Assembly (NCBI RefSeq): GCF_900102015.1 | Contig: NZ_FNAT01000002.1 | Span: 682,001-746,000, forward strand | DNA from: Limimaricola pyoseonensis | Lineage (GTDB): Bacteria; Pseudomonadota; Alphaproteobacteria; Rhodobacterales; Rhodobacteraceae | Direction: 5' to 3' | DNA: 64,000 nt | Shown: in pieces, positions 5,527 to 21,511 of the stretch | How positions within the stretch are numbered: the stretch's first letter is position 1 | How the letters are laid out: each line of letters starts with the position of its first letter | Program-made: the position numbers and the translations under genes | The notes under the pieces: model-generated | What the model saw: the letters and a program-made list of their open reading frames with translations, nothing else | Database searches by the model: none | What the model was told of the DNA's origin: nothing

Positions 5527-5537
5527 CTGCACCGCAG
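5527..5537. promoter_or_regulatory. PhaR-type operator, site 1
   Basis: The sequence CTGCACCGCAG fits the CTGC-N3/4-GCAG pattern reported for PhaR binding in Paracoccus. It lies 97 bases before the phaP start inside a T/A-rich stretch, and its centre is 28 bases from that of site 2. The two sites are inverted copies of each other (GCTGCACCGCAG against CTGCGGTGCAGC). Confidence 0.72.
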
Positions 5538-5554: not shown

Positions 5555-5565
5555 CTGCGGTGCAG
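5555..5565. promoter_or_regulatory. PhaR-type operator, site 2
   Basis: The sequence CTGCGGTGCAG inside the longer context AATGCTGCGGTGCAGC is a second CTGC-N3-GCAG palindrome, 69 bases before the phaP start. The paired arrangement with site 1 suggests that PhaR, encoded two genes downstream, represses phaP (and its own gene) until granules sequester it. The PhaR mechanism is family knowledge; binding here is inferred. Confidence 0.75.
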
Positions 5566-6212: not shown

Positions 6213-6749
6213 ATGGCCGAGACCGCGAAACCGCTTCTGATCAAGCGCTATGCCAGCCGCCGGCTCTACAACACCGAGACCAGCGACTACGTCACGCTCG
6301 AGGACATCGCCACCTTCATCCGGCAGGGCCGCGAGGTACAGATCGTCGATCTGAAATCCGGCGACGACCTGACCCGGCAATACCTGCTGCAGATCATCGC
6401 CGAGCATGAGAGCCGCGGCGAGAGCGTGCTGCCCGTGGACGTGCTGACCGACCTCGTGCGCAGCTACACCAGCCAGGCCAGCTCGGTGGTGCCGCAGTTC
6501 CTGGCCGCCTCCTTCGAGATGCTGCGCGACGGGCAGTCGAAGATGATGGAGAACATGACCAAGGTCTCGCCGATGGGCCAGATGCCCGGCTTCGAGGCGA
6601 TGCGCGCCCAGCAGCAGGCCTTCTTCAAGGCGATGACCGGCGGCATGATGGGCAGCTCCGGCCCCGAGCGGGAGGGCGGCGAGGATCTCGACGAGATCAA
6701 GCGCCAGCTCGCCGAGCTGCAGTCGAAGCTCGCCAAGATGGGCAAGTAG
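6213..6749 (+). CDS. phaR: Polyhydroxyalkanoate synthesis repressor PhaR
   Basis: DNA- and granule-binding regulator of PHA genes, 178 residues. The N-terminal DNA-binding/accumulation domain (residues about 8-70) begins with the family signature KRYASRRLYNTETSDYVTLE, followed by the second PHB-accumulation domain (LPVDVLTDLVRSYTSQAS, about 75-110) and a Met/Gln-rich, probably granule-binding C-terminal part ending in a short coiled segment. ATG 6213 follows a GAGGGGGA Shine-Dalgarno; an upstream in-frame ATG at 6156 would lie over the phaP terminator. It is expected to bind the CTGC-N3-GCAG sites upstream of phaP. Confidence 0.95.
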   Translation: MAETAKPLLIKRYASRRLYNTETSDYVTLEDIATFIRQGREVQIVDLKSGDDLTRQYLLQIIAEHESRGESVLPVDVLTDLVRSYTSQASSVVPQFLAASFEMLRDGQSKMMENMTKVSPMGQMPGFEAMRAQQQAFFKAMTGGMMGSSGPEREGGEDLDEIKRQLAELQSKLAKMGK

Positions 6750-18474: not shown

Positions 18475-19079
18475 CAGAGCGCGTTCAGGATCGGCCAGAG
18501 CGTGGCCACCAGCAGCGCCGCCATCGTCCAGTTGAAGGCCCTGAGCCGCCACGGCGCCGAAAGCAGCCGCCGCAGCCCCTGGCCCAGCACCGTCCAGAGC
18601 CCGGCCGAGAGCGTGCCCATCACCGCGAAGACCGTCACCACCAGCGCCACGCCCCACAGCCCCTGATGCGCCGCGTAGGCGCTGGTCGCGGTCACCGCCA
18701 TCGCCCAGGCCTTGGGGTTCACCCACTGGAACGCCGCCGCCTGCAGGAAGGTGAGCGGCCGGCCCTCGGTCTCGGGGGCGTCGGCCGCCTTCGGCGCGGC
18801 GGTCGCGATCTTGTAGGCGAGCCAGAGCAGGAAGGCGACGCTGGCGAATCGCAGCACCTGCGTCAGCAGCGGCCAGATCTCGAACACCCGCGCGAGGCCC
18901 AGACCCACCAGGCCCGCCATGCCGGCGAAGCCCAGCGCCACGCCGGCCATGTGCGGCACGCTGCGGCGCAGGCCGAAATTGGCGCCCGAGGCCATCAGCA
19001 TCAGGTTGTTCGGCCCCGGCGTGAACAGGGTGACGAGGGCAAAGCCCATGAGCGCGGGAAGGATGGCGAGCGTGGTCAT
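18474..19079 (-). CDS. LysE/RhtB family amino-acid exporter
   Basis: Inner-membrane exporter of 201 residues with six hydrophobic segments. The N-terminal signature ALVTLFTPGPNNLMLMASG (residues about 14-32) is diagnostic for the LysE/RhtB/CadD superfamily, and AFQWVNPKAWAMAVTA is the second conserved motif. The substrate is unknown. The start ATG 19079 is preceded by a 55-base gap to the last hairpin of the small-RNA array on the same strand. Unless that hairpin terminates transcription, the exporter gene is the distal part of the array transcript. Confidence 0.9.
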   Translation of the reverse strand: MTTLAILPALMGFALVTLFTPGPNNLMLMASGANFGLRRSVPHMAGVALGFAGMAGLVGLGLARVFEIWPLLTQVLRFASVAFLLWLAYKIATAAPKAADAPETEGRPLTFLQAAAFQWVNPKAWAMAVTATSAYAAHQGLWGVALVVTVFAVMGTLSAGLWTVLGQGLRRLLSAPWRLRAFNWTMAALLVATLWPILNAL

Positions 19080-19133
19080 GGGCCGCACTCTGCACCGATC
19101 GGTGGCGAAGGGAAGACCCCTGAGACGAGAAAC

Positions 19134-19164
19134 GGCGACGCCCGGGGAGGAGGAGGGCGCCGCC
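19134..19164 (-). terminator. Last array hairpin, possible weak terminator
   Basis: The final stem is 10 bp and GC-rich (GGCGACGCCC with GGGCGCCGCC on the plus strand) and is followed on the minus strand by GTTTCTCGTCTC. The U-content is modest, so read-through into the lysE-type gene 55 bases further on is likely at some level. Confidence 0.4.
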
Positions 19165-19866
19165 GTCTGTCCGGTCTGCGGCCCCAAGGGAGGAGGAAGG
19201 ACCGCATCCGTCTCGGACGAGCGACCGGGCAGGGAGGAGGAAGCCCGGCCGCTCTATGCAACGAATGCCCCGAGGGAGGAGGAGGGACATCCGTGTCTGG
19301 ATCGACCGGCGGGGCCAGGGAGGAGGAGGGCCCCGCCGGTCTGGTCCGTGCGCCCCAAGGGAGGAGGAGAGGCGCGCGACCTTGAAACTGTAAGCGGCGG
19401 GACCGGGGAGGAGGTGGTCCCGCCGCTGCGATTCCCGGCCCGCCAGGGAGGAGGAGGGCGGCCCGAGTCTCGGTCGACCGGCAGGCCCAAGGAGGAGGAG
19501 AGCCTTGCCGGTCCGATCTACGCGCCGCCCAGGGAGGAGGAGGGGCGGCCCGTATCCCGTGAAACTGTGAGCGGCGGGGCAGGGAGGAGGAGAGCCCCGC
19601 CGCTATCGATCCGCTCGGGCCCCAGGGAGGAGGAGGGGGCCTCGGCGTCTCGTGCGACCGGCAGCGTCAGGGAGGAGGAGGACCCTGCCGGTCTGATCTA
19701 CGCGTCGCCCAAGGGAGGAGGATGGACGACCCGTATCTCGGTATCTGGCAAAGCGACGGCATCAGGGAGGAGGAGATGCCGTCGCCTTGGTGCGGACCGC
19801 TCCAGGGAGGAGGAGGGAGCGGGACCGCGGCTCGCGACCGGTTCAGGGAGGAGGAGGAACCGGCCG
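19134..19866 (-). ncRNA. Array of 17 cuckoo (CcsR-like) stem-loops with CCUCCUCCC loops
   Basis: Read on the minus strand, 17 consecutive hairpins each expose CUCCUCCUCCCU (or a close variant) in an 11-14 base loop. In transcription order they occupy 19866-19835, 19822-19797, 19785-19753, 19730-19704, 19693-19656, 19641-19618, 19604-19570, 19549-19524, 19513-19476, 19461-19440, 19427-19393, 19375-19350, 19341-19304, 19292-19263, 19250-19223, 19206-19177 and 19164-19134. Stems are 5-13 bp, all different in sequence but compensated. Loop spacing averages 44 bases. The loop mimics the 16S rRNA anti-Shine-Dalgarno. Location behind a DUF1127 gene and loop sequence match the CcsR/cuckoo RNAs of Rhodobacter sphaeroides, where four copies are known. 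The ninth loop in order carries UCCUCCUU, one base off. Likely products are individual processed sRNAs of about 40-75 nt. Confidence 0.9.
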
Positions 19867-19879
19867 GGAAGCGGAAAAC

Positions 19880-20089
19880 TCAGCGGGCCTGGGCGGCCTC
19901 GATCGCGATGCCCTTGATCGCCGAGCGGCTGATGCCGAGATCGGCGAGATCGCGGTCGGTCAGGCTCTGCAGCTCGTTGTAGGTGCTGCGATAGATCTTC
20001 TGGCGGGCGATCCGGTCAGCCAGGCTGGCGCGGAACTCGGCGATGCGCTGGCCGAAGCCGGTGGCGCGGGTGTCGGTCGTGTATGCCAT
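19880..20089 (-). CDS. ccaF1: Small DUF1127 protein, CcaF1-like
   Basis: 69-residue basic protein, starting MAYTTDTRATGFGQRIAEF and carrying the DUF1127 core ELQSLTDRDLADLGISRSA in its C-terminal half. In R. sphaeroides the DUF1127 protein CcaF1, encoded directly upstream of CcsR1-4, binds RNA and promotes maturation of these sRNAs; the identical arrangement here supports the same role. ATG 20089 follows AAAGAGG at eight-base spacing on the minus strand. The first hairpin of the array begins 13 bases after the stop, so gene and array must share a transcript. Confidence 0.9.
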   Translation of the reverse strand: MAYTTDTRATGFGQRIAEFRASLADRIARQKIYRSTYNELQSLTDRDLADLGISRSAIKGIAIEAAQAR

Positions 20090-20199: not shown

Positions 20200-20228
20200 A
20201 AAATAGGCTCGTGCTGCGGATGCACAAT
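20200..20228 (-). promoter_or_regulatory. Candidate RpoH-type promoter for the DUF1127/array operon
   Basis: On the minus strand ATTG is followed after 17 bases by CCTATTTT. This fits the alphaproteobacterial heat-shock sigma pattern CTTG-N16-18-CYTATNT except for the first base of the -35 box. In R. sphaeroides the homologous operon is driven by RpoHI/RpoHII. The fit is by eye. Confidence 0.5.
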
Positions 20229-20245
20229 CCCGTCCGTCGGCAATG

Positions 20246-20256
20246 CTGCTATGCAG
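20246..20256. promoter_or_regulatory. PhaR-type palindrome upstream of the DUF1127/array operon
   Basis: CTGCTATGCAG within TGCTGCTATGCAGCA is a perfect CTGC-N3-GCAG palindrome. Its context AATGCTGC-N2-TGCAGC also matches phaP operator site 2 at the flanking A and T positions. It is 18 bases upstream of the candidate -35 box on the minus strand and about 150 bases upstream of mrp on the other strand. PhaR binding is inferred. Confidence 0.45.
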
Positions 20257-20407
20257 CAAACGCATGGTGAAAGTTCTGTGAATACGGGAGCTTACCTAGG
20301 GTGATTTCGCGCGTATGCCGGCTGCTTGCGCTTTGTGCGGCAAAGGTAGAGGCTTGCGCGCAAATCGAGCGGCGCACGCATGACGCGCCCGGTGAGACGG
20401 AGTTTCC

Positions 20408-21511
<1,104 letters not shown>

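What the first reader, a model, noticed from the sequence alone, without database searches (positions are those of the whole stretch)
19134..19866. Expanded array of 17 anti-Shine-Dalgarno hairpins behind a DUF1127 gene
Each of 17 consecutive stem-loops presents CUCCUCCUCCCU in its loop, with all stems different yet compensated. The loop and the DUF1127 neighbour match the cuckoo/CcsR RNAs, of which R. sphaeroides carries four in a row. Seventeen copies in one operon would be a very large sponge or multi-sRNA precursor able to pair with Shine-Dalgarno sequences (GGAGG). Copy number may tune the dose of the response.
Basis: partly seen in the sequence, partly recalled or inferred. Interest (0 to 1): 0.92.

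Follow-up and report, generated by a model that had tools for sequence, protein, structure and literature searches.

The report
Seventeen-hairpin anti-ribosome-site small-RNA array
A marine bacterium carries, behind a gene for a small RNA-binding-type protein, a run of seventeen RNA hairpins that all display the same short sequence able to cover the start signals of other genes' messages; it is an unusually long member of a known RNA family, probably used to turn down nutrient uptake.

Summary
On the minus strand, 19872-19130, 17 hairpins follow a DUF1127 gene. All 17 loops contain CCUCCUCC. Stems differ, but each 5' arm suits its own 3' arm (0 of 5000 permutations as good).

It is the Limimaricola copy of the cuckoo/CcsR (CIN1) locus; mrp lies divergently upstream in 37 of 38 full-length array loci. 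Seventeen is long but not unique: among 41 arrays of 3 or more hairpins the commonest size is 8, others reach 16-17, and two unnamed relatives have 20 and 26. The module is a CcsR-like hairpin pair, here repeated in blocks of four.

Most likely it is a multi-sRNA precursor whose redundant loops block Shine-Dalgarno sites. ORFs behind loop-complementary GGGAGGAG sites are enriched for ABC/TRAP transporter parts (16 of 37 versus 4 of 57 behind control sites), matching tested targets of the alphar14 sRNA NfeR1. "Sponge" is not supported.

New lead: a conserved promoter module with a PhaR-type operator and a RpoH-like core, suggesting control by PHB/carbon status as well as stress; phaC-phaP-phaR lie about 14 kb away. 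No expression, processing or binding data were available.

The parts
20244..20258 (-). Extended palindrome TGCTGCATAGCAGCA, a PhaR-type operator (CTGCNNNGCAG)
   Evidence: exact CTGCN3GCAG upstream of DUF1127 in 28 of 39 array loci incl. the window
20212..20228 (-). Second conserved element ATTGTGCATCCGCAGCA (resembles the mmgR PhaR site but with a 4-base centre; overlaps the putative -35)
   Evidence: mmgR site in PMC12542648
20222..20227 (-). Putative RpoH-like -35 TTGTGC
   Evidence: TTGT element 30-31 nt after the palindrome start in 36 of 40 loci
20200..20206 (-). Putative -10 CTATTTT, 15 nt spacer
   Evidence: my -10 pattern fits 14 of 36 loci at 15-16 nt; others read by eye (e.g. CCCATGTT); inference
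19880..20089 (-). DUF1127 gene (CcaF1-type), 69 aa
   Evidence: PF06568 E 2.3e-12
19130..19872 (-). Array of 17 anti-Shine-Dalgarno hairpins
19830..19872 (-). hairpin 1
19792..19828 (-). hairpin 2
19749..19789 (-). hairpin 3
19695..19739 (-). hairpin 4
19656..19693 (-). hairpin 5
19612..19647 (-). hairpin 6
19570..19604 (-). hairpin 7
19519..19554 (-). hairpin 8
19476..19513 (-). hairpin 9
19430..19471 (-). hairpin 10
19393..19427 (-). hairpin 11
19343..19381 (-). hairpin 12
19304..19341 (-). hairpin 13
19261..19294 (-). hairpin 14
19219..19254 (-). hairpin 15
19170..19217 (-). hairpin 16
19130..19168 (-). hairpin 17; possibly also a weak terminator, followed by TTTCTCGTCT
   Evidence: not found by the terminator scan, whose loops end at 8 nt
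20408..21511 (+). mrp/ApbC-type ATPase gene, divergent neighbour that marks the conserved locus
   Evidence: PF10609; upstream and divergent in 37 of 38 array loci
18477..19079 (-). LysE-type exporter gene, about 50 nt downstream (read-through possible)
   Evidence: PF01810; downstream in 9 of 38 array loci
6213..6749 (+). phaR, the candidate regulator
   Evidence: PF07879, PF05233
5527..5565 (.). Two CTGCN3GCAG sites (5527-5537, 5555-5565) upstream of phaP
   Evidence: phaP is PF09361

Best explanation
This is the Limimaricola copy of the alphaproteobacterial cuckoo/CcsR (CIN1) locus: one transcript carrying a DUF1127 RNA-binding-type protein and, in its 3' region, 17 redundant anti-Shine-Dalgarno hairpins. 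By analogy with CcsR1-4 the precursor is cut by RNase E, with the DUF1127 protein taking part, mostly into two-hairpin sRNAs of about 87 nt. Each loop (CUCCUCCUCCCU type) then pairs with extended GGGAGGAG-type Shine-Dalgarno sequences and blocks translation of a limited mRNA set, chiefly substrate-binding proteins of ABC and TRAP importers. Because the loops are nearly equivalent, hairpin number sets dose per transcript, and it changes by tandem duplication of blocks (four hairpins here, two or three in relatives). The promoter looks RpoH-like with a PhaR-type operator, so I infer induction by stress and release from PhaR when PHB accumulates, turning nutrient uptake down. Shown here: structure, locus conservation, modular growth, conserved promoter module, enrichment of transporter genes among loop-complementary starts. 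Inferred: transcription, processing, target repression, PhaR control.
For: 17 of 17 loops carry the core; arm-swap test 0 of 5000. The R1 covariance model finds the same 17. Rfam ar14 and CcsR1 sub-threshold hits tile the array; CcsR1 is itself two hairpins. Two-hairpin periodicity: mean arm identity 0.43, 0.53, 0.45, 0.53 at lags 1-4 in 27 arrays of 8 or more; about ten arrays alternate short (about 40) and long (about 65-80 nt) spacings. A 4-hairpin block of the window is absent from L. cinnabarinus and L. hongkongensis, which have 13 motifs. mrp divergent in 37 of 38 loci. Target test: GGGAGGAG-N3-10-ATG occurs 40 times against 3 for the reversed pattern; 16 of 37 downstream ORFs are ABC/TRAP parts (12 substrate-binding proteins) versus 4 of 57 (1) behind AAGGAGA starts, Fisher 5e-5 and 3.6e-5 (collapsed 8e-5). 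Literature (passages): NfeR1 (alphar14) has three redundant aSD loops and silences SBP mRNAs (PMC8844928, PMC7143759, PMC10746234); CcsR1-4 are co-transcribed with ccaF1, RpoHI/HII-driven and RNase E-processed (PMC10253847, PMC7866481, PMC8307010).
Against: No transcript, cleavage or target data for this organism. The array does not reach the Rfam gathering scores. GGGAGGAG starts may simply be the strong SD type favoured by transporter genes; the association does not prove repression. The control starts were not drawn at random. Two of the 37 target ORFs are probably not genes (L192, L014) and two look like internal starts (L204, counted as ABC; L206). The R. sphaeroides targets in the passages read are FlhR, glutathione pool and pyruvate dehydrogenase, not transporters. 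The bare CTGCNNNGCAG occurs 104 times in the genome, 79 for the reversed pattern, and stands before 11 of 32 DUF1127 loci without an array. Seven of 16 linkers are only 1-2 nt, leaving little room for RNase E there.
Confidence: 0.72

Rival explanations
1. The array acts whole, as a 3'UTR scaffold or decoy: it binds and titrates a protein (the DUF1127 protein itself or Hfq), with little trans-acting base pairing.
For: Array and DUF1127 gene keep together across genera (the loci were fetched by DUF1127, so arrays elsewhere were not sampled by that scan); CcaF1 is an RNA-binding protein that affects CcsR levels (PMC10253847); 7 of 16 linkers are 1-2 nt.
Against: The loop sequence is far more conserved than structure alone needs (8 invariant positions); CcsR1-4 and NfeR1 act as sRNAs on mRNAs; ORFs with extended SDs matching the loop are enriched in one functional class.
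Confidence: 0.12
2. The array regulates its own operon or the downstream lysE gene in cis (attenuation or terminator array).
For: At least 5 T in the 12 bases around the end of the last hairpin in 25 of 41 arrays (3 in the window); lysE starts about 50 nt downstream in the window.
Against: lysE is downstream in only 9 of 38 array loci; one terminator does not need 17 like loops.
Confidence: 0.06
3. Plus-strand RNA presents GGA in the loops and works as a CsrA/RsmE-type sponge.
For: The complement puts AGGGAGGAGGAG in hairpin loops, as CsrA sites are (recalled). By single units the plus strand folds better in 6 of 17.
Against: No CsrA (PF02599) in the genome, while the same search rings in 3 of 14 control genomes; mean folds are better on the minus strand (-22.9 versus -20.2; G-U pairs 15 versus 9; a weak sign); DUF1127 gene and promoter module lie on the minus strand.
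Confidence: 0.01
4. It is a repetitive protein-coding region.
For: One plus-strand frame is open across the array; a frame is open in 4 of the 8 arrays checked (window, L015, L016, L025).
Against: No Pfam match; hairpin spacings are not multiples of three throughout; no frame is open in the other 4 of 8, among them L. variabilis; arm-swap test.
Confidence: 0.01
5. Neutral tandem-repeat expansion: the locus works as CcsR elsewhere, but the extra hairpins are mere duplication products without effect on dose.
For: Copy number differs between near species in blocks; an unnamed relative has 6.5 copies of a 140-bp unit at 97%; L. variabilis has a stem whose loop lost the motif (by eye).
Against: Loop cores stay invariant while neighbouring arms are only about 46% alike yet remain paired, so old copies appear to be under selection.
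Confidence: 0.15

Closest known systems
CcaF1-CcsR1-4 operon of Rhodobacter sphaeroides (RF02791; CIN1/cuckoo locus)
   Same: DUF1127 gene followed by co-directional hairpins with CCUCCUCC in the loops; two-hairpin module; RpoH-like promoter
   Different: Four sRNAs, hence about eight hairpins (inferred), against 17 here; pitch here 40-52 nt without the 60-80 nt gaps of relatives such as L028 or L070 (R. sphaeroides itself was not examined); a PhaR-type operator is not mentioned in the CcsR passages read
alphar14 sRNAs / NfeR1 of Sinorhizobium meliloti (RF02344)
   Same: Same aSD motif in every loop, hypervariable stems, redundant loops, SBP/transporter targets
   Different: Free-standing three-hairpin gene with sigma70 promoter, six copies in the genome; no DUF1127 partner mentioned in the passages read
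AbcR1/AbcR2 (alphar15)
   Same: CUCCUCCC aSD in a loop; ABC-transporter mRNAs as targets
   Different: Different fold, one such loop per RNA plus a second unlike aSD, no array
MmgR (alphar8)
   Same: PhaR-repressed sRNA whose promoter carries CAATTGTGCACCGCAGCATTA; an aSD motif in its first loop
   Different: Single 77-nt sRNA of another family

Membership tests
cuckoo RNA / CIN1 (CcsR-type) | Adjacent hairpins each with the CCUCCUCCC-type motif in the loop | tested here: met
   17 of 17 carry CCUCCUCC in the loop
cuckoo RNA / CIN1 (CcsR-type) | Stems of variable sequence but conserved pairing | tested here: met
cuckoo RNA / CIN1 (CcsR-type) | Directly behind a short DUF1127 gene, same strand | tested here: met
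cuckoo RNA / CIN1 (CcsR-type) | 2 to 4 hairpins per RNA (recalled from the 2015 abstract; paper not held) | tested here: inconclusive
   17 in one array; depends on processing, which is unknown
CcsR1 (Rfam RF02791) | Score at or above gathering (65.3 bits) | tested here: not met
   best 38.7 bits, E 2.3e-7
ar14 (Rfam RF02344) | Score at or above gathering (58.8 bits) | tested here: not met
   best 53.2 bits, E 2.6e-8
CcsR-type | Co-transcription with the DUF1127 gene and RNase E processing | not testable with these tools
   known for R. sphaeroides
CcsR-type | RpoHI/RpoHII-dependent promoter | tested here: inconclusive
   TTGTGC-N15-CTATTTT; TTGT element in 36 of 40 loci, -10 pattern in 14 of 36; no expression data
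PhaR regulon | CTGCNNNGCAG operator in the promoter (R. sphaeroides PhaR, PMC12542648) | tested here: met
   20246-20256, conserved; but the bare 11-mer is common in the genome (104 against 79)
PhaR regulon | PhaR binding and PHB-dependent derepression | not testable with these tools
   needs EMSA or reporter fusion
CsrB-type sponge | CsrA present in the genome | tested here: not met

The most novel reading that the evidence does not exclude
A carbon-overflow brake: the PHB-sensing repressor PhaR directly controls the DUF1127-cuckoo operon across Rhodobacteraceae, so that when PHB granules sequester PhaR (or stress activates RpoH) a large, lineage-tuned dose of anti-Shine-Dalgarno hairpins shuts translation of ABC/TRAP substrate-binding proteins whose start sites carry matching GGGAGGAG, with tandem duplication of hairpin blocks as the evolutionary dose dial.
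Probability: 0.3. Interest if true: 0.75.

Novelty: new variant of a known kind. Interest (0 to 1): 0.55.

Why it matters
It offers a natural copy-number series (3 to 26 like effector loops behind one DUF1127 gene) in which sRNA dose can be studied as an evolving trait. If the promoter reading is right, it also links carbon storage (PhaR/PHB) and heat/oxidative stress (RpoH) to translation of nutrient importers in a major marine bacterial family. That would make the Rhodobacteraceae locus a counterpart of AbcR/NfeR1/MmgR control in rhizobia.

Tried and rejected
Rfam at gathering scores gave nothing in the window or in six further loci, so membership rests on sub-threshold hits plus locus features. 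One sub-threshold 6C RNA match (E 0.14) I take as chance.

Reversed sequence as a null for the hairpin matcher is not a null, because the motif and the hairpins are mirror-symmetric; I used the other strand and the arm-swap test instead. The same weakness affects the tool's reversed-pattern control for CTCCTCCTCCC (27 reversed against 14), which I do not use.

Covariation count on alignment A3 supports pairing (56.9% of cells versus 46.6% shuffled, 0 of 500), but the alignment is imperfect: loop registers differ by one base, and a slide of -1 scores almost as high (54.3%). Its hairpins had also been picked by a matcher that requires stems. I rely.

The family survey scores only 22 candidates per genome and finds 13 of the window's 17; its counts are lower bounds. 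Twelve genomes were rescored and nine stretches of six of them were read. My matcher also misses some hairpins (12 of 13 motifs in L015, 15 of 16 in L021).

Whether the extra block of the window and that of L. variabilis are one or two duplication events is undecided: window hairpins 8-10 and L. variabilis 7-8 resemble their own array at least as much, window 11 and L. variabilis 9-10 resemble the other species more.

Across-genome test: the ratio of GGGAGGAG to AAGGAGA starts is 0.34 in 21 array-rich genomes and 0.15 in 20 genomes without a model match (p 2e-5). I do not use it as proof: G+C, genome size and relatedness are not controlled, per-Mb AAGGAGA also differs (p 0.015), and only 20 of the 57 genomes without a match were listed and used.

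In one search the third Fisher test used wrong totals (32 and 44); the right ones (33 and 46) are, p 1.3e-4. An earlier notebook line says the control ORFs came from 50 places; they came from 61 loci.

The promoter/terminator scan found no sigma70-type promoter and no terminator at the array end.

A solo hairpin at G000:C18:29516 first looked like the best target (11-nt complementary SD); it is itself a cuckoo-like hairpin with a long stem.

Full report
WHAT IS THERE. Read on the minus strand, a 69-aa DUF1127 gene (20089-19880; PF06568, 2.3e-12) is followed 7 nt later by 17 hairpins ending at 19130. Folded unit by unit, all 17 present the CCUCCUCC core in the loop; mean pitch is 43.8 nt. TCCTCCTCC occurs 18 times in the array and once elsewhere in the window, against 0.69 expected from shuffles. 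My matcher finds one cluster of 17 on the minus strand, 7 single hits elsewhere on it, and 4 single hits on the plus strand. The covariance model R1, built from 72 hairpins of many species including three from the window, recovers exactly these 17 at E below 0.01; the next matches have E 0.12 and 0.53.

STRUCTURE IS SELECTED. For every motif occurrence inside the array bounds, folded or not, I compared the energy of the own 5' and 3' arms with that of arms swapped between hairpins. Window: -22.1 against -11.9 kcal/mol, 0 of 5000 permutations as good, own arm the single best partner in 12 of 17. The 16 arrays I chose (of 41) all gave 0 of 5000. The eight core loop positions are identical in 17 of 17, while stem positions range from 7 to 15 of 17. 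On average the minus strand folds better than the plus strand and has more G-U pairs (15 against 9), although by unit the plus strand is better in 6 of 17 and equal in 1; a weak sign for the direction of the DUF1127 gene.

HOW THE ARRAY IS BUILT. Alternate hairpins resemble each other. Mean arm identity in 27 arrays with 8 or more hairpins is 0.43, 0.53, 0.45 and 0.53 at lags 1 to 4. About ten of the arrays show spacings alternating between about 40 and 65-80 nt: a two-hairpin unit, which is the architecture of the Rfam CcsR1 model. In the window the gaps have shrunk, but from hairpin 3 on linkers average 8.1 nt after odd-numbered and 3.3 nt after even-numbered hairpins, and the dominant long period is 172-180 bp, that is four hairpins. 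L. cinnabarinus and L. hongkongensis lack one such block and have 13 motifs. L. variabilis has 16, plus, by eye, one stem whose loop has lost the motif. Whether the extra blocks of the window and of L. variabilis share one origin is undecided.

HOW UNUSUAL IS 17. Of 81 loci examined (80 DUF1127 relatives from one scan, plus the window), 41 have an array of 3 or more hairpins by my matcher. Sizes run from 3 to 17, the mode is 8 (13 of 41), and two have 17: the window and Wenxinia marina. A survey of 296 genomes of the family found model matches in 239, with incomplete scoring. Reading the best candidates gave 26 hairpins in G146 and 20 in G267. So the array is at the long end of a distribution, not outside it. 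The genome itself is a Limimaricola: G098, placed in the same genus, has a contig of 669053 bases, as does L. cinnabarinus XM1 in the named collection.

SAME LOCUS. The Mrp/ApbC gene is upstream and divergent in 37 of 38 full-length array loci. LysE follows in only 9 of 38, so it is not a fixed part of the system. The genome has seven DUF1127 genes. Another of them (L100) is followed by two hairpins, the last with CCCUCCUCCC in the loop and a T-run.

LIKELY MECHANISM. The literature on relatives gives the mechanism. NfeR1 (alphar14) has three hairpins with the identical aSD motif in hypervariable stems; the loops are redundant and silence mRNAs of substrate-binding proteins, two of which were tested (PMC7143759, PMC10746234 and PMC8844928; passages read). 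NfeR1 is Hfq-independent, whereas CcsR1-4 are called Hfq-dependent. CcsR1-4 are co-transcribed with the DUF1127 gene ccaF1, cut by RNase E, RpoHI/HII-driven, and target flhR (PMC10253847, PMC7866481, PMC8307010; passages read). The primary papers on cuckoo RNAs, CcsR and CcaF1 are not held.

TARGET TEST. GGGAGGAG, the 8-nt complement of CUCCUCCC, stands 3-10 nt before ATG 40 times in the genome, against 3 for the reversed pattern. From these 40 places I took 37 ORFs of 60 aa or more; 12 are substrate-binding proteins and 4 more are ABC or TRAP components. Two of the 37 are probably not genes (the array's own complement, L192, and the solo hairpin, L014), and L204 and L206 look like internal starts. 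Of 57 ORFs behind AAGGAGA starts, taken from 61 loci out of 103 sites (the first 30 listed and 31 that I picked), 1 is a substrate-binding protein and 3 are other ABC components; an ammonium transporter is not counted. Fisher p is 3.6e-5 and 5e-5; removing the array itself, the solo hairpin and one member of a shared operon gives 8e-5. Calculated duplexes of the loop with the GGGAGGAG starts average -19.5 kcal/mol, stronger than the 16S tail at -15.0; for the control starts the order is reversed, -9.6 against -11.2 (partly true by the choice of pattern). This agrees with NfeR1/AbcR-like control of uptake, but it is an association.

PROMOTER. The region before the DUF1127 gene is strongly conserved. 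In 39 of 40 loci (38 relatives, the window, G146) a site within 3 mismatches of TGCTGCAT-N-GC(A/G)GCAT is found. In 36 a TTGT element follows 30-31 nt from its start, usually with GCAGCA shortly after. My -10 pattern fits only 14 of these 36, at 15-16 nt; by eye others read CCCATGTT or similar. The hits in L047 and L048 lack the second element and are doubtful. The published R. sphaeroides PhaR site is CTGCNNNGCAG, and the S. meliloti mmgR site, bound by PhaR, is CAATTGTGCACCGCAGCATTA (PMC12542648, passages). The second element here resembles the mmgR site but has a 4-base instead of a 3-base centre. The exact CTGCN3GCAG is present in 28 of 39 upstream regions including the window, although only 38 such sites occur in 244 kb of these loci. 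Without the window it is 27 of 38, against 11 of 32 DUF1127 loci without an array; 10 shorter loci were left out. Against this stands that the bare 11-mer is common in the own genome, 104 sites against 79 for the reversed pattern, so the argument rests on conservation and on the extended palindrome TGCTGCANNGCAGCA, which occurs twice in the genome. The phaC, phaP and phaR genes are in the same window, with two CTGCN3GCAG sites before phaP. None of the six other DUF1127 loci of this genome shows the site in the 3-kb stretches read. I found one paper holding both PhaR and DUF1127 as whole words, a taxonomic one known to me only from the search listing, whose lists are capped at 20 and 12, showed no abstract making this link.

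ODDS. On checking this report I lowered the novel reading from 0.35 to 0.3, because the commonness of the bare operator and the partial fit of the -10 had been left out.

WHAT IS NOT SHOWN. There is no evidence here on transcription, processing, Hfq or DUF1127-protein binding, target repression or PhaR binding.

Noticed in passing
20265-20200 (minus): Conserved promoter module with a PhaR-type palindrome and a mmgR-like second site in nearly all array loci read; suggests PHB/carbon control of the cuckoo operon.
   Followed up: partly
L100 1410-1321 minus (G000:C8, behind another DUF1127 gene): A second DUF1127 paralogue is followed by two hairpins, the last with CCCUCCUCCC in the loop and a TTTTT tail: a mini-cuckoo locus.
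   Followed up: partly
L014 1523-1487 minus (G000:C18:29516): Solo hairpin with a long stem and CCUCCUCCC loop, 3' of an ORF that looks by eye like a D-alanyl-D-alanine carboxypeptidase; perhaps a terminator carrying the aSD loop.
   Followed up: partly
L181-L184 (genome G197): Dispersed two-hairpin units with different stems and flanks, several with a T-run behind, read at five places: alphar14-like genes rather than one array. Whether DUF1127 genes are near was not tested.
   Followed up: partly
L177 938-1847 (genome G146): Largest array seen: 26 hairpins in all, with 6.5 nearly identical copies of a 140-bp three-hairpin unit, that is, very recent expansion.
   Followed up: partly
L017 array, hairpin 7 region: A stem that has kept pairing but lost the loop motif (short UCCCU loop), seen by eye in the alignment.
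   Followed up: no
last hairpin of arrays: In 25 of 41 arrays at least 5 of 12 bases around the end of the last hairpin are T, so a terminator with a long aSD loop may double as an effector hairpin; the window has 3.
   Followed up: partly
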